Assembly: GCA_028718945.1 (NCBI GenBank) | Contig: JAQUKT010000013.1 | Coordinates: 1-32,204 of the forward strand | Reading direction: 5' to 3' | Length of the DNA: 32,204 nt | From: Actinomycetota bacterium | GTDB lineage: Bacteria; Actinomycetota; Geothermincolia; Fen-727; JAQUKT01 | In this document: positions 1-32,204 of the stretch, one piece after another | Position numbering within the stretch: the first letter of the stretch is position 1 | How the letters are laid out: every line of letters starts with the position of its first letter | The notes under the pieces: model-generated | What the model saw: only the letters and a program-made list of their open reading frames with translations | What the model was told of the DNA's origin: nothing | Database searches by the model: none | Position numbers and translations under genes: made by a program

Positions 1-38
1 CTTGACCCTACATCCATTCCGATGTACACTTTCTTCAT
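1..38 (-). CDS. IS110-family transposase, N-terminal fragment (runs off the window)
   Basis: Read on the minus strand, an ATG at 38-36 opens a frame giving MKKVYIGMDVGS before the window ends. The short hydrophobic strand followed by GMDVGS is the typical start of IS110-family DEDD recombinases, where this Asp is the first catalytic acidic residue. A strong Shine-Dalgarno site (AAGGAGGG, forward 45-52) precedes the ATG. Only 12 residues are visible, so the family call rests on this motif and the context, and the rest of the gene lies outside the window. Family members catalyse RNA-guided insertion and excision of the element. A different transposase with a similar N-terminus remains possible. 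Confidence 0.6.
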   Translation of the reverse strand, partial: MKKVYIGMDVGS

Positions 39-93
39 GACGGACCCTCCTTTCACGCTACTTTTTACAAACAAGTTTAAAGGAGTGTCCGTC
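39..93 (-). promoter_or_regulatory. Hairpin that would bury the transposase ribosome-binding site
   Basis: Forward arms 39-53 and 79-93 are inverted copies matching at 14 of 15 positions, with a 25-nt loop. In the minus-strand transcript the 3' arm contains the AAGGAGGG Shine-Dalgarno sequence and ends directly against the AUG at 38. When folded, the hairpin would block ribosome entry, a known way of keeping transposase levels low. It could also serve as a DNA-level subterminal inverted repeat of the element; the sequence alone does not separate the two. Confidence 0.6.
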
Positions 94-104
94 TTCTTAA
101 TAAT

Positions 105-128
105 CCAGGTCTTGCAATAACACATTTT
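105..128 (+). repeat. Dispersed repeat copy A (5'-truncated)
   Basis: This matches the window-wide repeat from CAGGTCTTGC to ACACATTTT, but the leading GGGGT found in other copies is replaced by unrelated sequence. The loss of match at about 104/105 coincides with the end of the presumed IS110 flank, suggesting the mobile element entered this copy. A degraded second copy (AGGTCTTGCAAT, then ACATTT) follows at about 143-170. Confidence 0.75.
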
Positions 129-197
129 AGTGAAATGGGCTTAGGTCTTGCAATCATCAATCATACATTTAATCATCATACGCAAGGCAGGCAAAAC

Positions 198-226
198 AAA
201 TGTGTCATTGCAAGACCTGACCCCCC
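198..226 (-). repeat. Dispersed repeat copy B (inverted relative to A)
   Basis: This is a full-length copy in minus orientation, ending in a run of six C. It is inverted relative to copy A, so 105-226 could form a long hairpin with about 23-bp arms. It lies just ahead of hdrC. The outward TTGCAA (208-213) and TAATAT (232-237) are 18 bp apart, which resembles a weak promoter, although it would start transcription almost at the hdrC start codon. Confidence 0.8.
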
Positions 227-4600: not shown

Positions 4601-4972
4601 GATTTTGCCACGGATGGAATCTTCGTCGCGGGACTGGCACATTATCCGAAGACAATAAGCGAATCAATCGACCAGGCAAATGCTGCTGCCTCGAGAGCAG
4701 AAACGATTCTTTCAAAAGAGGAAGTCATAACCGAGGGGACGGTTGCCTTCATTGACGAGGAAATTTGTACAGGTTGTGGGCAGTGCGTTTCTCTCTGCTC
4801 CTTCGGGGCTATTACCTTTGATGAGGAAAAGCGTGTCGCGGTGGTGAACCCTTCTTTGTGCAAGGGATGCGGGACCTGTTCATCAGCCTGTTACTCGGGA
4901 GCAAGCCGGATGCTTGGATTTACTCCCGAGCAGTTGTATTCACAGATTGAGGCTGCTTTTTTGAGTGTGTGA
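1673..4972 (+). CDS. hdrA: Heterodisulfide reductase subunit A-like flavoprotein, double-module form with an in-frame insertion
   Basis: This 1099-residue FAD and iron-sulfur protein is the electron-bifurcating or confurcating hub of HdrABC complexes. Module 1 (about 43-470) has the FAD motif GGGIGG (48-53), the HdrA-specific DCSMC (91-95), and two [4Fe-4S] motifs (Cys 144/147/150/154 and 191/199/202/206). Module 2 starts near residue 485 with the VVCHCGTNIGG domain that opens ordinary HdrA, then a second FAD motif GGGVAG (about 630), and ends with two ferredoxin motifs after residue 1033. The size is well above the roughly 650 residues of methanogen HdrA, as in bacterial duplicated forms. 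Residues 873-927 are foreign (see the insertion at 4280-4453). The start is TTG 1673, overlapping the hdrB stop; ATG 1691 with AGGGG five bases upstream is an alternative. Confidence 0.9.
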   Translation: MKTGVFMQAESKKGKGKSKKAKVESPIGAREKPEPKRSRVTGAAIVVGGGIGGVQASLDLVEMGYKVYLLESSPSLGGVMGQLDKTFPTNDCSMCILSPKLVEAGSSENIEILTLTDVLSITGKPGDFKARVRIRPRYVDVEKCTGCGICSENCRVKVKDPYNANLTRVPLIRVPFPQAVPLSAFIDPSKCLFLLKGKCGNCKEVCAAGAVNFNDKERIEEIRAGSVIIASGLKTFDARKRGEYGYGIYPNVITSLEFERILCASGPTQGRVIRRNDGKHVKKIGFIQCVGSRDKVIGNSYCSSVCCMYSTKEAIIAKEHSPEIEPTIFYIDTRACSKGFEEYTERAKEFHGIRYIRCLPSFAKEVAPSGNILLRYIDEGANIKEEEFDLLVLSVGLEAGTGEIAKSTGVELDQHGFVSSPPENPVSTSRPGIYACGVALSPKDIPETVAQASASAGMASLVMKEARGKLMKRKEYPPEREISPEPRIGVVVCHCGTNIGGVVNVKEVVEFAKDLPGVVFSDERIYACSQDAQEWIRDMIGKHDLNRVVVASCTPRTHQPLFRETLKSAGLNKYLFEMANIREHCSWVHMNSPEEATEKAKTLVRMAVAKASLLVPLAEGSSPVVHSALVIGGGVAGMVAALKLAETGYQVYLLEGQDSLGGKARHVRKTIEGMDVSEFIEKTITRVMSHPRIEIFLGARLKEIDGYIGSFRSTIEVGERVEEIEHGVVIVATGAEEYVPRKGEYLFGLDERVITQTEFERRIWCEPETLRNVRRVAMIQCVGSRSEEHPYCSRICCSVAVKNSLAFLELNPDADVSICYKDVRTYGLKEDYYFEAREKGVNFIRFNEEYPPSVGKIGEKIELKVNDANLSAPSHKYRLHSIADPSTQERSAPSEYNRSTRWSRALQERRLDALGTIPHLWNGTLSAEEIKLEPDLVVLSCGTVANPSAQEIAQMLKVPLDSNGFFLEAHVKLKPVDFATDGIFVAGLAHYPKTISESIDQANAAASRAETILSKEEVITEGTVAFIDEEICTGCGQCVSLCSFGAITFDEEKRVAVVNPSLCKGCGTCSSACYSGASRMLGFTPEQLYSQIEAAFLSV
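4280..4453 (-). mobile_element. In-frame 156-bp MITE-like structured insertion inside hdrA, with 9-bp target duplication
   Basis: The 9-mer CTTAGTGCT occurs at 4280-4288 and 4445-4453, exactly 165 bp (55 codons) apart. Removing one copy plus the 156 bp between them restores a normal HdrA reading (NLSA joined to EEIKLEPDLVVLS). The ends are inverted: 4287-4305 and 4424-4442 match at 14 of 19 positions, and all five differences are transitions that become G-U wobbles in minus-strand RNA, giving 19 continuous pairs. Internal hairpins are present at 4394-4412 (8-bp arms GAGCGTCG, 3-nt loop) and 4337-4349 (5-bp arms GAGCG). No stop codon occurs in the hdrA frame. It carries no transposase gene, so it would be mobilised in trans. 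I see no second copy in this window. Confidence 0.75.
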
Positions 4973-5033
4973 TTTGAGGGAAATAGGTGATTCTAAGTGG
5001 ATGATTTGAGGGAAATACGTGATGGCAAGCGAT
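4970..5033 (+). repeat. Imperfect 32-bp tandem duplication between hdrA and mvhD
   Basis: The segments 4970-4991 and 5002-5023 are 22 bp long, differ at one base, and are offset by 32 bp. Each includes TTGAGGGAAATA and GTGAT. The duplication therefore places one Shine-Dalgarno-like GAGGG at the hdrA stop codon and a second before the mvhD start. Confidence 0.8.
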
Positions 5034-5504
5034 GAAAATGTGTTATTGCAAGACCTGACCCCAATAAGGATAGTTGCGTTCCTTTGCAACTGGTGCTCTT
5101 ATGCGGGTGCTGACCTCGCGGGCGTGAGCAGGCTTTCATATCCAGCCAATGTGGTAACGATTAGGGTCATGTGCTCCGGGACGGTTTCTCCCTATCATGT
5201 ATTGAAGGCTTTTCAAAGCGGGGCTGACGGGGTTCTGATAACTGGTTGCCATATCGGGGATTGCCATTACCTGAAAGGAAACTACATGACCTACAAGCGC
5301 TTCCAAGTGATTCAGGGGCTGCTTCAATTTGTGGGGATTGAGCCCGAGAGGTTCAGGCTCGAATGGATATCGGCATCGGAAGGCGAGAAATTCGCGGAGA
5401 CGGTAAGAGACTTTACTGAGGAAGTGGGAAAACTCGGGGAAAGTCCTCTTGCGGATGAGCGGGAAGCCGCGAAATCAAGAGAAGCCTTGATGCGGAGGTT
5501 TTAG
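5022..5504 (+). CDS. mvhD: MvhD-type [2Fe-2S] electron-transfer subunit
   Basis: This 160-residue protein is homologous to the delta subunit of F420-non-reducing hydrogenase, which wires hydrogenase or formate dehydrogenase to HdrA. Diagnostic motifs are CNWCSYAGADLAGVSR (Cys 22, 25), VMCSG (Cys 51) and GCHIGDCHY (Cys 76, 81). Its position between hdrA and the formate dehydrogenase genes supports that coupling role. ATG 5022 has GAGGG (5008-5012) nine bases upstream; GTG 5019 is an alternative with a six-base spacer. Codons for about residues 5-13 (ENVLLQDLT) lie within a dispersed repeat, so the first 14 residues are an acquired extension ahead of the normal family start (IRIVAFLCNW). Confidence 0.92.
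   Translation: MASDENVLLQDLTPIRIVAFLCNWCSYAGADLAGVSRLSYPANVVTIRVMCSGTVSPYHVLKAFQSGADGVLITGCHIGDCHYLKGNYMTYKRFQVIQGLLQFVGIEPERFRLEWISASEGEKFAETVRDFTEEVGKLGESPLADEREAAKSREALMRRF
5035..5062 (-). repeat. Dispersed repeat copy C, inside the 5' coding end of mvhD
   Basis: This is a complete copy of the repeat in minus orientation (AAAATGTG through TGACCCC). It lies wholly within the mvhD frame without introducing a stop and supplies part of the N-terminus. Confidence 0.9.
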
Positions 5505-6325: not shown

Positions 6326-8428
6326 ATGATTGATGAGGAAATGGTTGACTATAGAACTGTTCCAACCGTGTGCCCGTACTGCGGAGCCGGTTGCGGGATG
6401 CTCTTGGAGGTTTGCTCAGGGGAGGTTATTGGCGTTCTTCCCATGAAGGGTCATCCATCATCAAAGGGTAGTCTGTGCGCGAAAGGATGGTCTTCGCCGG
6501 AGTTTTTGAAAAGCTCAAATCGGTTGGCGAAAGCGATTCTCAGGGAAGAAGGCGAGGAAAAGGAAGTTTCACTTGAAAGCGCTCTTGGTCTGGTTGTTGA
6601 GAATCTGAATCGCGTACTCGAGAAATATGGTCCAGAGGCTGTGGGTTTCATTTCCTCTGCACGGTGCACGAATGAGGAAAATTACCTTCTCGAGAAGTTT
6701 GCAAGGACTTTCGCAAAAACAAACAACATTGACCACTGCGCGCGTTTGTGACACAGCCCTACCGTCGCGGGTCTCGCGGCAGCGTTTGGGAGCGGTTCGA
6801 TGACGAATTCGATAGGCGAGATTTCCCGCGCTTCTCTGTTGCTCGTTGTTGGCTCGAATACTACCGAGAATCACACGGTAATTTCCGGGAAAATCATAGA
6901 GGCAGTGCGCAACGGGGCAGAACTGATAATAATTGACCCGCGTAAAATCCAGTTGAGCCAGATTTCAAGCATGCATCTCAGGAACAAGCCCGGTACGGAC
7001 GTCGCTCTTCTTTGTGCGATGATGAAGTTGATTATTGATGAGAAATTGCACGATGAGAATTTTATCGGTGAGAGGACCGAAGGATTCGAGGAACTGAAAG
7101 CATCTTTGGGAAATTGCACTTCTGCGTGGGCATCTGAGGTAAGCGGCATCCCGGTGAGCGAAATTGAAAAGGCGGCAAGGCTTTTCGCGGGAGCAGAGAA
7201 TGCCTCAATCATCTACTGCCTGGGGGCAACGGAGCACGTCTCTGGAACGGACATTGTTCGAACGCTTGCAAATCTTTCTATGCTCACCGGAAATGTCGGT
7301 AAACCATCGAGCGGCGTCAATCCCCTGAGGGGTCAGAACAATGTTCAGGGTGCCTGTGATATGGGAGCGCTTCCCAATTCGCTTCCGGGTTATGTGAATG
7401 TAAGTGATGATGAGGGCAGGAAAGAGTTCGAGGACTTGTGGGGAATAAAGATTCCTGAAAGTCCGGGGCTTACCGTTCCGGAGATGATTGAGCAGGCTTT
7501 GGCGGGGCGCATGCACTTCATGTTCATAATGGGAGAGAACACGGTTCTTTCTGAGCCAAACTCGCAGAAAGTCATTGAAGCATTAAAGAATATCGAATTT
7601 CTCGTTGTAGAGGACATCATGAAAACTGATACAACCGACCTTGCGGACATCGCCATTCCCGCGGCTTGCTGGGCTGAGAAAGAGGGGACATTCACGAGCA
7701 CTGAAAGAAGAGTTCAGCATGTGGGAAAGGCGGTTGAGCCTCCTGGAGACGCGAAATCCGACCTTGAGATTCTCGTTCGTCTTGCCGGTATTGCAGGAGC
7801 AGAAGGGTTTGATTTCAAGAACTCGAGAGAGGTGTTTTCTGAAATTACAAAAGTTGTGCCTGCTTATGCTGGAATCAATTATGAGCGAATTGGAACAAAG
7901 GGAATTCAATGGCCATGCTCTTCCCCCGAGCATGAGGGAACGGTTTTTCTCCATGAGAAAAAATTCACCCGTGGGAAAGGAAGATTCCAACCCGTCAAGT
8001 ACAGACCTCCGGCGGAAGTTCCCGATAATGAATTTCCTTATGTCCTGATGACGGGGAGGAACGCGTTTCAGTATCATACCGGAACAATGACGAGAAACTC
8101 TCCTTCGCTTGAGAGGGAGGCAATGTATCCCTATGTCGAGATAAATCCATCTGATGCGCAAAAGGAATCTGTCAAGGGCGGGGATATGGTAACGATTTCA
8201 ACAAGGAGAGGTCAAATAAGATTACGCGCCCGTGTTACTGACGCGGTATGCGAGGGTCAGATATTTATTCCTTTCCATTACAGGGAAGCGCCGGCGAATA
8301 TCCTGACAAGTGAAGAACTCGACCCGGAAGTGAAAATCCCCGAATTGAAGGTTTGCGCCGCAAAAATCAAGAGGGGTCAATCAAGAGGGGTCAGGTCTTG
8401 CAATAACACATTTTTGAACTCCTTTTAA
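6326..8428 (+). CDS. fdhA: Selenocysteine-containing formate dehydrogenase, catalytic subunit
   Basis: This 700-residue molybdenum/tungsten enzyme oxidises formate to CO2, or the reverse. The N-terminal [4Fe-4S] site is CPYCGAGC (Cys 16, 19, 23) plus Cys 51 in SLCAKG. The frame meets TGA at 6749-6751 and continues in the same frame. Reading it as selenocysteine 142 gives ARL-U-HSPTVAGLA, the exact active-site context of Sec-dependent formate dehydrogenases, and a SECIS hairpin follows. The molybdopterin domains continue to the C-terminal cofactor-binding part (LMTGRNAFQYHTGTMTR). I see no twin-arginine signal, so a cytosolic location is expected. The last residues (RGVRSCNNTFLNSF) come from a dispersed repeat and adjoining bases rather than the family. 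The start is ATG 6326, with AAAGGGA about 11 bases upstream. Confidence 0.93.
6749..6780 (+). promoter_or_regulatory. UGA selenocysteine codon with bacterial SECIS hairpin
   Basis: After TGA (6749-6751), GTCGCG at 6764-6769 pairs with CGCGGC at 6775-6780 (one G-U pair) around the five-base loop GGTCT. The same GGUCU loop lies 18 nt after the UGA in the E. coli fdhF SECIS, and 18 nt separate them here too. This would recruit SelB with Sec-tRNA at codon 142 of FdhA. Confidence 0.9.
8367..8415 (+). repeat. Dispersed repeat copy D with a 14-bp tandem duplication, at the 3' end of fdhA
   Basis: The repeat core is at 8387-8415 in plus orientation. It is preceded by two tandem 14-bp units, TCAAGAGGGGTCAA (8367-8380) and TCAAGAGGGGTCAG (8381-8394), the second merging into the repeat. 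It is read in frame as the FdhA C-terminal tail. The following 107 bases up to the aminotransferase contain an AT-rich stretch but no clear promoter or terminator that I can defend. Confidence 0.85.
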
Positions 8429-8535: not shown

Positions 8536-9852
8536 TTGAATCAACTTGCTGTCGAATTGAACGAGAAGATAAAGGCATTCTGCCCCGCGCTTTTCGCCGT
8601 GCTTTCGGAACTCGGTCGAGAACTCTATTTTCCAAAAGGCATACTGACCCAGACTGCGGAAGCGCGCGAAAAAGCCCACAGGTTCAATGCGACTATAGGA
8701 ATAGCAAAGTCGGGTGGGCAAGCGATGTATCTCCCGGTGGTTATGGAGCAGATTCCCGGTCTCAGTTCCGATGAAGCACTGGATTACGCCCCGGCAACTG
8801 GAAATCTAATGTTGAGGAGAGAATGGCATAAGCAGATGTTGGAGAAGAATCCCAGTCTCGAGGGAAAAAAGACAAGCCTTCCCATTGTGACGGCTGGAAT
8901 TACTCATGGACTTTCGATTTCCGCGGATCTTTTCGTTGACCCGGGCGATACGGTAATTATCCCCGATAAGTTCTGGGGGAACTATCAGATGATTTTTGGC
9001 ACGAGGAAAAAAGCGGAGATCGAAAAGTTCAGGTTCTTTTCCGATGACAATGGCTTCGATGTCGCATCTTTTGCTTCCACCCTTAGTAAGGTGCTTCAAG
9101 AGAAAGGGAAGGCTATCGTTGTTTTGAATTTCCCGAACAACCCGACAGGATATTCGATCAAAAAAGACGAAGCGCAAGCACTGGTGGATACCATAGTTCA
9201 GGCGTCCGATAAGGACAGGCGAATCGTGGTTCTCTTAGATGACGCATATTTCGGGCTTTTTTATGATGATGATGTTTTGCCGGAATCTCTGTTTGGTCTT
9301 CTCGCGGGACAGAGCGAGAACCTAATTTCTGTAAAACTCGATGGGGCGACCAAGGAGCATTATGTATGGGGGTTTCGGGTTGGCTTCATTACATTCAATG
9401 TGGCTGCAGGAAAAAATGAGGAAGAGGTCTATGGCGCCATCGAGAAGAAAGTTGGCGGCGCTATACGGGGGAACATCTCAAACTGCCCTTTGATTTCGCA
9501 GTCGATTATTCTGAAAGCGCTTTCGAATCCCGATATTTCGCGACAGAAATTGGATAAGCTTGAGATCATGCGCTCTCGTGCCAAGAGAATCAGAGAAGTT
9601 TTGGAGAATCCCAAGTTTGCCGAGTTTATGGAACCGTATCCATTCAACTCGGGTTATTTCATGTGTTTGAAGTTGAAGGGTGTGGATGCGGAGGAGTTCA
9701 GAAAGAAGCTTCTAAGGGATTATGGAGTTGGGGTTATCGCGGATGGTTCAGACATAAGAGTTGCTTTTTCCTGCCTCGAGGAGAAAGAGATTGAAGAGGT
9801 GTTCGACACAATGTATGAATGCCTGCATAAATGGGGTCAGGTCTTGCAATGA
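8536..9852 (+). CDS. Class I/II pyridoxal-phosphate aminotransferase
   Basis: This 438-residue fold-type I aminotransferase has the PLP hallmarks: NFPNNPTGY in the middle, an Asp in LLDDAYFGLFY, and the Schiff-base lysine in LDGATKEHYVWGFRVG (Lys 273). The length and the N-terminal half resemble bacterial aromatic or aspartate-type aminotransferases, but the substrate cannot be set from the sequence. The start is TTG 8536, with GGAGG (8527-8531) four bases upstream. The next gene is a homocitrate/isopropylmalate-synthase-like enzyme, so a joint role in 2-oxoacid/amino-acid metabolism is plausible. The stop codon and last five residues (GQVLQ) lie inside dispersed repeat E, so the native C-terminus may have been replaced. 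Confidence 0.85.
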   Translation: MNQLAVELNEKIKAFCPALFAVLSELGRELYFPKGILTQTAEAREKAHRFNATIGIAKSGGQAMYLPVVMEQIPGLSSDEALDYAPATGNLMLRREWHKQMLEKNPSLEGKKTSLPIVTAGITHGLSISADLFVDPGDTVIIPDKFWGNYQMIFGTRKKAEIEKFRFFSDDNGFDVASFASTLSKVLQEKGKAIVVLNFPNNPTGYSIKKDEAQALVDTIVQASDKDRRIVVLLDDAYFGLFYDDDVLPESLFGLLAGQSENLISVKLDGATKEHYVWGFRVGFITFNVAAGKNEEEVYGAIEKKVGGAIRGNISNCPLISQSIILKALSNPDISRQKLDKLEIMRSRAKRIREVLENPKFAEFMEPYPFNSGYFMCLKLKGVDAEEFRKKLLRDYGVGVIADGSDIRVAFSCLEEKEIEEVFDTMYECLHKWGQVLQ

Positions 9853-9860
9853 CACATTTT
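9833..9860 (+). repeat. Dispersed repeat copy E, spanning the aminotransferase stop codon
   Basis: This is a complete copy in plus orientation with G in the variable A/G position. The aminotransferase stop (TGA, 9850-9852) is part of the repeat. The ribosome-binding site of the next gene begins about 10 bases downstream. Confidence 0.9.
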
Positions 9861-25761: not shown

Positions 25762-25789
25762 GGGGTCAGGTCTTGCAATAACACATTTT
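25762..25789 (+). repeat. Dispersed repeat copy F, upstream of the pab leader
   Basis: This is a complete copy in plus orientation between the pab leader and the nucleotidyltransferase pseudogene. On the minus strand its TTGCAA (25778-25773) lies 18 bp before TAGACT (25754-25749), a possible weak promoter for the pab transcript. Confidence 0.9.
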
Positions 25790-31152: not shown

Positions 31153-32094
31153 ATGGGTGAACAAATTGTTGTTGGAAGCATAAATCTCGACATGGTTGTC
31201 ACTTCGCCTAAGATTCCGGGTCCCGGGGAGAATATCTGCGGACATGGTTTCAGGATGGTTCCGGGCGGAAAGGGGGCGAACCAGGCTGTTGCCTCCACAA
31301 GGCTCGGAAAGAAAACCAGGTTTCTCGGCTGTGTGGGAAATGACTTCTTCGGTGACTATCTTTTAGAAAATCTTTCAAAGGCGGAAGTCGACTCTTCGCT
31401 TATGAGAAGAGCAGAGGGTTTTTCTTCTGGTGTTGCTTTGATAGTGGTAGAAGAGAACACCGGGGTGAATACCATAGTTGTTGACAACGGAGCGAACGAA
31501 GCGCTTACCATTAAAGACCTTGAAGGCCTCGAGGTATTTTATGACTCTTCTGATTGCATTCTTTTTCAACTCGAGAGCCCGCTCGATGTTGTTGCCGAAG
31601 GCTCGAGGAGGGCAAAGGAGAGGGGTCTCATCACGGTGCTCGATGCAGGTCCGCCGAGGCAGGTGGAACTTTCGGTACTTGCGAATTTTGATGTTGTTTC
31701 TCCCAATAGAAATGAACTCGAGGTTCTTTCTGGGGTGAGAGTTGACTCCATCGCCCATGTTGTGCAAGCCGCCAAGCGCCTTCTCGAGTTTTCCGCGGGT
31801 TCAATCGTGGTGAAACTCGGTGAGGAGGGCTCACTACTTTTGACAGGTGAAGGAGCGTGGCTCTTTCCCCCGTATGAAGTCAAGCCTGTTGATTCTACAG
31901 CTGCTGGCGATGCTTTTACGGCTGCTCTGAGCGTTGCGTTAGGGGAAGGAACGAATCTTCACGATGCTGTTTGGTTCGCAAATGCTGCCGGAGCGCTTGC
32001 GGTTACGGTCTTTGGTGCGCAGCCTTCCATGCCGAAAAGAAATGATGTCATTGCTTTGATGACAAAGCGACAACGACAATGGGGTCACCTATAA
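31153..32094 (+). CDS. Ribokinase-like PfkB-family sugar kinase
   Basis: This 313-residue cytosolic carbohydrate kinase of the PfkB family is closest in layout to ribokinase. It has the N-terminal GSINLDMVV, the sugar-site GGKGANQA (38-45), and the C-terminal PfkB signature DSTAAGDAFTAAL with catalytic Asp. It would phosphorylate ribose or a related sugar or nucleoside with ATP. I use ATG 31153, with GGAAGTGA just upstream; TTG 31138 would add five residues. No ribose transporter is seen here. The last codons (WGHL then TAA) share ATGGGGTCA with the first bases of the dispersed repeat, a possible truncated copy. A terminator follows. Confidence 0.88.
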   Translation: MGEQIVVGSINLDMVVTSPKIPGPGENICGHGFRMVPGGKGANQAVASTRLGKKTRFLGCVGNDFFGDYLLENLSKAEVDSSLMRRAEGFSSGVALIVVEENTGVNTIVVDNGANEALTIKDLEGLEVFYDSSDCILFQLESPLDVVAEGSRRAKERGLITVLDAGPPRQVELSVLANFDVVSPNRNELEVLSGVRVDSIAHVVQAAKRLLEFSAGSIVVKLGEEGSLLLTGEGAWLFPPYEVKPVDSTAAGDAFTAALSVALGEGTNLHDAVWFANAAGALAVTVFGAQPSMPKRNDVIALMTKRQRQWGHL

Positions 32095-32126
32095 GAAGTA
32101 AAAGTCAAGACAAAACTTCCCCTGAT

Positions 32127-32145
32127 CCCGGATATCCGGGTTTTT
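32127..32145 (+). terminator. Intrinsic terminator after the ribokinase-like gene
   Basis: The perfect dyad CCCGGATATCCGGG (32127-32140, 5-bp arms and a 4-nt loop) is followed by five T and lies 33 bases after the stop codon. The last 59 bases of the window (32146-32204) hold nothing that I can assign. Confidence 0.7.
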
Positions 32146-32204
32146 AAGGCTATGTCTGCTTTGAAGGACACCCCGCTATGTGTGCATTGTCTTCCTCTTA
32201 GAGA

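What the first reader, a model, noticed from the sequence alone, without database searches (positions are those of the whole stretch)
1..128. IS110-type element apparently inserted into a dispersed repeat
The transposase start (MKKVYIGMDVGS) lies 66 bases from the point at about 104/105 where repeat copy A loses its first five bases. Some IS110 elements are known to target repetitive REP sequences. The junction therefore suggests that this element uses the repeat as its target. The short upstream flank suggests that any guide (bridge) RNA lies at the other end, as in the IS1111 group.
Basis: inference. Interest (0 to 1): 0.6.

Follow-up and report, generated by a model that had tools for sequence, protein, structure and literature searches.

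The report
RNA-guided jumping gene inside dispersed repeats
A jumping gene of the RNA-guided IS110/IS1111 kind has inserted again and again at one exact point of a repeat scattered through this bacterium's genome, and relatives carry guide RNAs whose letters match their targets; REP-targeting elements of this kind are already known, so this is a good new example rather than a new mechanism.

Summary
Window 1-105 is the left end of an IS110-family element (tnp start 38..1, minus strand). It is joined at 105/106 to a repeat lacking GGGGT. The window's other end (32088-32204) is the right end of a second copy, and there the missing GGGGT is present. In the whole assembly I found 5 left ends and 6 right ends. 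All 11 break the repeat CAAGACC-TG-ACCCC at the same TG (99 intact copies; reversed control 0). The element body is absent from the bin, so the rest comes from relatives in the same class. These are about 1.55 kb with a short left end, a DEDD/Transposase_20 recombinase and a 400-nt non-coding right end. One (G172) sits on a single contig with both halves of its repeat restored. The right ends fold as a two-loop guide RNA whose loops match the element's ends and its target. Own guide-target pairs beat all 719 swaps. In G000, G172 and G017 the targeted repeats flank a RAYT gene, so they are REPs. Layout and guide order are those of the IS1111 group; ISPa11 is the direct precedent. New member of a known kind.

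The parts
1..38 (-). 5' end of the IS110-family transposase gene (MKKVYIGMDVGS), cut by the contig end
   Evidence: similar to MSEVYIGIDVGSK of full-length relatives
39..105 (-). left end (LE) of the element, non-coding, 67 nt
   Evidence: identical in 5 contig ends of G000 over the part each holds; they diverge only outside the element
93..99 (-). left subterminal inverted repeat TAAGAAG, 6 bp inside the core
106..107 (-). core dinucleotide TG (CA on +), present at both element-target junctions
   Evidence: same dinucleotide on both sides in G172, G205, G007 (TG) and G009 (CG)
108..128 (+). remainder of the interrupted REP copy (GGTCTTGCAATAACACATTTT); its head GGGGT is missing here
134..224 (.). 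second REP pair next to the insertion: degenerate copy (134-165) and intact inverted copy (198-224, intact target 211-224)
5036..5062 (+). intact REP copy with unoccupied target CAAGACCTGACCCC
8387..8413 (-). intact REP copy with unoccupied target
9833..9859 (-). intact REP copy with unoccupied target
25762..25788 (-). intact REP copy with unoccupied target
32081..32085 (+). GGGGT head of another REP copy, split off by the second element copy
32086..32087 (-). core dinucleotide TG at the right junction
32088..32204 (-). right end (RE) of a second copy of the element, same orientation as the left copy (tnp on the minus strand)
   Evidence: 6 contig ends match at 98-100% identity; a longer copy of this end (C14) is homologous to right ends of full-length relatives
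32092..32098 (+). right subterminal inverted repeat TAAGAAG, 4 bp inside the core

Best explanation
It is an IS1111-group member of the IS110 family that uses a RAYT-associated REP as its insertion target. The element has a short left end, a DEDD recombinase gene, and a ~400-nt right end encoding a two-loop guide (bridge/seek) RNA. The donor loop pairs with the element's own two ends around a TG core. The target loop pairs with the REP, its first segment with the REP head (TG-ACCCC) and its second with the REP body (CAAGACC-TG). The recombinase exchanges strands at TG, so the circular element inserts precisely between GGGGT and the rest of the REP without loss of bases. Shown by sequence: the junctions, the restored repeat, the RAYT association, the layout, and guide-target matching in relatives. 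Inferred: transcription, RNP formation, circle intermediate, strand exchange, and that G000's own unread target loop has the same guides as G017's element, whose target is identical over 14 bp.
For: 11 of 11 element ends found in G000 (5 LE; 6 RE) break the same repeat at the same dinucleotide. Control: 99 intact CAAGACCTGACCCC in G000 and 0 for the reversed pattern. Relative G172:C4 has a full element on a 286-kb contig, LE flank TTTTGTCCCATGTCCGGGGC-TG and RE flank TG-ACCCCATTG; an intact TTTTGTCCCATGTCCGGGGCTGACCCCATTGG lies 300 bp upstream. Relative G017: LE junction inside its own, different REP, at the homologous point. RAYT (PF01797) loci in G000, G172 and G017 are flanked by the REP that the IS uses in that genome. 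Guides: own pairs 76 of 90 matches, best of 720 permutations, mean 50.8. Unbiased NCR scan: right-guide match p 0.0005-0.024 in 5 of 6 elements; left-guide match 9 of 9, p<0.0005 in G017. Donor guides: left 6-8 of 8 in 6 of 6 relatives; right 6-8 of 8 in 6 of 6 relatives and 7 of 8 in G000. RNA fold z -3.31; 11 of 37 pairs with changes on both sides, 93% of cells paired against 34-50% for slid partners. PF01548 and PF02371 in 4 of 4 proteins.
Against: The element body, most of the protein and the target loop of G000's own copy are not in the bin. Target specificity in relatives is uneven. The closest left end by DNA (G008) has two junctions whose flanks (AGTACC-AG, GGTGCC-TG) are not this REP, and G014, G009 and G007 flanks are not shown to be REPs. 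In one search the left guide is clear only in G017; in G172, G205_C40 and G009 it is no better than shuffles, in G007 it is borderline (p 0.08), and the best G330 match falls outside the loop. G205_C40 has no significant match on either side, and G172's best right match lies outside the loop. Guides for one search were read by eye, and related elements are not independent. RNAalifold's structure came from the same alignment that was counted.
Confidence: 0.9

Rival explanations
1. Assembly artefact: the shared contig ends are k-mer overlaps of a collapsed repeat graph, and the REP junctions are coincidental misjoins.
For: All G000 ends are at contig edges and most share about 127 nt or less, as expected of a de Bruijn overlap; no complete copy is in the bin.
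Against: C14 carries 224 nt and C63 an extra 9 nt of element; LE-side and RE-side contigs carry complementary halves of one repeat; G172 has the complete arrangement inside one contig.
Confidence: 0.03
2. The REP fragment is part of the IS end itself, so there is no target specificity.
For: All 5 left ends carry at least 21 nt of REP.
Against: The REP exists 99 times as an intact 14-mer without the element; it varies between LE contigs (CAATAACAC and CAATGACAC) and is followed by different sequence; the RE has only TG-ACCCC and then unique DNA in 6 of 6; in G172 and G017 the adjoining sequence is a different REP.
Confidence: 0.02
3. The recombinase reads the REP hairpin itself, and the RNA does not choose the site.
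For: REPs are palindromic and the targets of the main group share TG-ACCCC; nothing here tests activity.
Against: G007 and G009 proteins are 83% identical, yet their targets and right guides differ together (CCCCTCAA and CGGCTCAA, each 8 of 8 with its own guide); guide-dependence of IS1111-group elements was shown experimentally (PMC11187229, passages read).
Confidence: 0.05
4. Copies spread by recombination between REPs rather than by targeted transposition.
For: REPs are abundant and could recombine; the two copies at the window ends are direct repeats.
Against: The 6 RE flanks beyond ACCCC and the LE flanks beyond the REP differ, and the same point is used in other genera with different REPs.
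Confidence: 0.03

Closest known systems
ISPa11 (IS1111 group, Pseudomonas aeruginosa)
   Same: IS1111-type element, NCR downstream of tnp, guide RNA with top-strand complement 5' of the bottom-strand match, inserts in REPs (PMC11187229, abstract and passages; PMC1525189, passages, 6 of 6 copies in REPs)
   Different: Host lineage and REP sequence differ; I did not align the two elements
IS621 (IS110 group, Escherichia coli), bridge RNA
   Same: DEDD recombinase, dinucleotide core, RNA with target and donor loops, REP target (PMC11208160, passages)
   Different: Bridge RNA in the left end, core CT, very short subterminal repeats; here the RNA is in the right end and the core is TG
ISPpu9, ISPpu10 (P. 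putida), ISRm19 (Sinorhizobium)
   Same: IS110-family elements found only in REPs (7/7, 7/7, 4/4 in PMC1525189)
   Different: Not compared in sequence here
REP/RAYT systems
   Same: The target is a repeat flanking a RAYT gene in inverted orientation, as described in PMC2817692 (passages)
   Different: The head is GGGGTCA rather than GT(A/G)G, and the host is outside the gammaproteobacteria discussed there

Membership tests
IS110 family | DEDD (PF01548) plus Transposase_20 (PF02371) recombinase | tested here: met
   4 of 4 full-length relatives; for G000 itself only about 12 residues are available, and PF01548/A1 searches find no body in the bin
IS110 family | insertion at a specific site around a short core without target loss | tested here: met
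   11 of 11 ends in G000; both ends of one copy in G172 with an intact control
IS1111 group | long non-coding region downstream of tnp, short left end | tested here: met
   relatives: about 90 nt left, about 400 nt right; G000: 67 nt left, at least 224 nt right without a gene in the relatives' counterpart
IS1111 group | subterminal inverted repeats (usually 11-13 bp, 7 bp left and 3 bp right extensions; 7-17 bp) | tested here: inconclusive
   7 bp TAAGAAG in G000 with 6/4 bp outside it, 6-10 bp in relatives read by eye; shorter than usual
IS1111 group | guide order: top-strand complement 5' of bottom-strand match | tested here: met
   GGGGTCA precedes CAAGACCTG in G017 and G205_C60, same order in the other relatives; not readable in G000
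IS1111 group | position in a transposase phylogeny with IS1111 | not tested
   no tree was built
bridge RNA / seekRNA | two-loop RNA matching target and donor | tested here: met
   relatives only; no Rfam match
bridge RNA / seekRNA | RNA expressed and bound by the recombinase, required for insertion | not testable with these tools
   needs RNA-seq and a transposition assay
REP (RAYT-associated) | dispersed repeat in opposite orientation on both sides of a Y1 transposase gene | tested here: met
   G000:C3, G172:C1 and G017:C16

The most novel reading that the evidence does not exclude
This IS1111 lineage is a specialist parasite of RAYT repeats. One guide arm is kept on the head shared by many REP families (GGGGT-CA, identical in 4 elements: G172, G330, G017, G205_C60), while the other arm is rewritten to fit the REP family of each host (GAGGGGC, AGAGGGC, CCAAGACC). 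The element would thus follow RAYT/REP turnover across genera and cut the repeat exactly at its head, possibly inactivating it for the RAYT.
Probability: 0.35. Interest if true: 0.55.

Novelty: new member of a known kind. Interest (0 to 1): 0.4.

Why it matters
It gives a natural series of related RNA-guided recombinases whose guides and targets change together across genera of one actinobacterial class, with empty, half and filled sites visible. If the two-arm pattern holds, it shows how such elements are retargeted in nature while keeping an anchor on a repeat head that the RAYT may need, which is useful for designing programmable bridge-RNA tools and for understanding how REPs are parasitised.

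Tried and rejected
A complete copy was not found. PF01548 and the four-protein alignment A1 find no body in G000. The LE pattern in genome contigs gave 3 records: one the G008 contig, and two (L024, L025) in whose 8-kb loci the start-motif screen found no IS110-like ORF, so I treat them as chance. Viral contigs gave none for the LE pattern and none for A1. The RE pattern gave 29 viral stretches, which I did not inspect and treat as chance. Plasmids gave no RE match.

One search (LE over 396 genomes of the phylum) listed only 2 LE ends for G000, because only 2 of 6 candidates were scored. I used instead, which are themselves capped (40 candidates scored). The G224 match was looked at and is weak (E 0.006, no element seen).

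A first idea of a CT core and then of a GG core was dropped: only TG (CG in G009) is repeated on both sides and leaves an intact REP.

Other IS110 proteins of the class (G183, G017:C2, G011 and others) were left out of the guide analysis because they are distant. G205_C60 was left out of the 6-element permutation because its left end is replaced, and G014 because its right end is cut off. The pattern CTGACCCC in six relatives was too short to be informative alone.

Rfam finds no known RNA in the right ends. An Infernal model was not built, and no structure prediction was run.

Full report
What was checked. The window is contig C13 (32,204 bases) of a 1.80-Mb, 121-contig assembly, G000. A same-order relative, G008, corresponds to a record titled Actinomycetota bacterium fen_680, so the host is taken to be an actinobacterial lineage. 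The minus strand from 38 to 1 reads MKKVYIGMDVGS, and the element-repeat boundary is at 105/106.

The junction recurs. A DNA search of the whole assembly with the first 225-600 bases finds the same left end at five contig ends (C13, C4, C63, C36, C53), all joined at the same base to the repeat CCAGGTCTTGCAATNACACATTT. Beyond the repeat their flanks differ, and the repeat itself varies (A or G), so the repeat is target, not element.

The far end. From full-length relatives I predicted that the right end should be followed by TG-ACCCC. A pattern search and then an unbiased DNA search with window 32088-32204 found six right ends (C13, C14, C70, C84, C99, C110). All six continue into TG-ACCCC and then into unique DNA. 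One is the window's own right end. The intact 14-mer CAAGACCTGACCCC occurs 99 times in G000, and its reversed control 0 times.

Full-length relatives. G000 holds no complete copy. In the same class, G172, G205, G009, G007, G330, G017 and G014 carry related elements. Complete ones are about 1.55 kb: a left end of about 90 nt, a recombinase of about 345 residues with PF01548 and PF02371 (4 of 4 scanned), and a right end of about 400 nt without a gene. In G172 the left flank is TTTTGTCCCATGTCCGGGGC-TG and the right flank TG-ACCCCATTG; an intact copy of that joined sequence lies 300 bp upstream. G017 has its own REP, TGCAAAAAACAAGACC-TG-ACCCC, interrupted at the same point. The dinucleotide TG (CG in G009) is present at both junctions, so it is the core. 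Not all relatives fit: two G008 junctions and those of G014, G009 and G007 are not in a recognised REP, and in G205:C40 the right flank is TG-ATCCCC, one base off the REP head.

The repeat is a REP. G000 has one Y1 transposase gene (C3; MARPLRIEFPGAVYHITARGN...), with the repeat in opposite orientation on its two sides. In G172 (C1) and G017 (C16), RAYT genes are flanked by the repeat used by the IS in that genome. The flanked-by-inverted-REPs organisation is that of RAYTs in PMC2817692 (passages).

The guide RNA. The right ends of seven elements align and fold as two domains with internal loops. The G017 RNA folds at -73.3 kcal/mol, z -3.31. Eleven of 37 pairs have compensatory changes, and 93% of cells are paired against 34-50% when partners are slid (the structure was derived from the same alignment). 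The first loop holds, in order, a segment complementary to the right side of the target and a segment identical to the left side. In G017 these are CTTGGGGT-CA and CAAGACC-TG, matching its target 8 of 8 and 7 of 7. The second loop matches the element's own ends: left donor guide 6-8 of 8 and right donor guide 6-8 of 8 in 6 of 6 relatives. Over six elements own pairs give 76 of 90 matches, and only 1 of 720 permutations, the identity, reaches that (guides read by eye). A scan without chosen positions supports the right guide in 5 of 6 elements (p 0.0005-0.024), although G172's best match lies outside the loop. It supports the left guide clearly only in G017 (9 of 9); G007 is borderline (p 0.08), G330's best match (p 0.047) lies outside the loop, and the others are not better than shuffles. 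G007 and G009, 83% identical in protein, have different targets and correspondingly different right guides, which speaks for the RNA choosing the site.

What this says about the window's element. Its ends, layout, core and target fit this subfamily. Of its own RNA only the 3' part is in the assembly (C14, 224 nt). It aligns to the relatives and contains the right donor guide (7 of 8). Its target is identical to G017's over CAAGACCTGACCCC, so the same guides are predicted but unseen.

Comparison with the known. The downstream non-coding region and the guide order are those given for IS1111-family elements in PMC11187229 (abstract and passages). The subterminal repeats here (7 bp in G000) are shorter than the usual 11-13 bp. 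ISPa11 is an IS1111 element in P. aeruginosa REPs with a demonstrated seekRNA. IS621, ISPpu9, ISPpu10 and ISRm19 are other REP-targeting IS110 elements (PMC1525189, passages; PMC11208160, passages). My paper searches did not list a description of this element or of a RAYT-REP-following IS1111 lineage in Actinomycetota, but the library is partial and I read passages of only four papers. It is a well-documented new member of a known kind. The most interesting part is the pattern of one constant and one rewritten guide arm across REP families.

Noticed in passing
G000: C17 (L080 1363-2070), C23 (L085 1378-1960), C89 (L092 1135-1826), C83 (L090): About 220-bp units, in tandem on C17, C23 and C89, sit at the 3' ends of four different tRNA genes (Ser-TGA, Val-CAC, Ser-GGA, Ser-CGA). 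Each unit re-creates that tRNA's 3' end and also carries an inverted, tRNA-specific near-copy of the T-arm beside a constant part. They look like tiny non-autonomous tRNA-targeting elements with target-matched arms.
   Followed up: partly
G000:C56:1-127 (L129) and G000:C36 right end (L130): Two contig ends share an identical stretch of about 100 nt that ends in an intact REP exactly at ACCCC, after which they differ. This suggests another repeated unit bounded by the REP head.
   Followed up: no
window 134-165: A degenerate REP copy (AATGGGCTTAGGTCTTGCAATCATCAATCATA) lies between the interrupted copy and an intact inverted copy, so the insertion sits in a nested REP cluster.
   Followed up: no
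G008:C5:1-106 and G008:C24 right end (L011, L032): A close left-end relative joins two different, non-REP flanks (AGTACC-AG and GGTGCC-TG), so this branch may have another target.
   Followed up: no
window 4959-5022: Tandem pair of 32-nt repeats (84% alike) immediately upstream of an intact REP.
   Followed up: no
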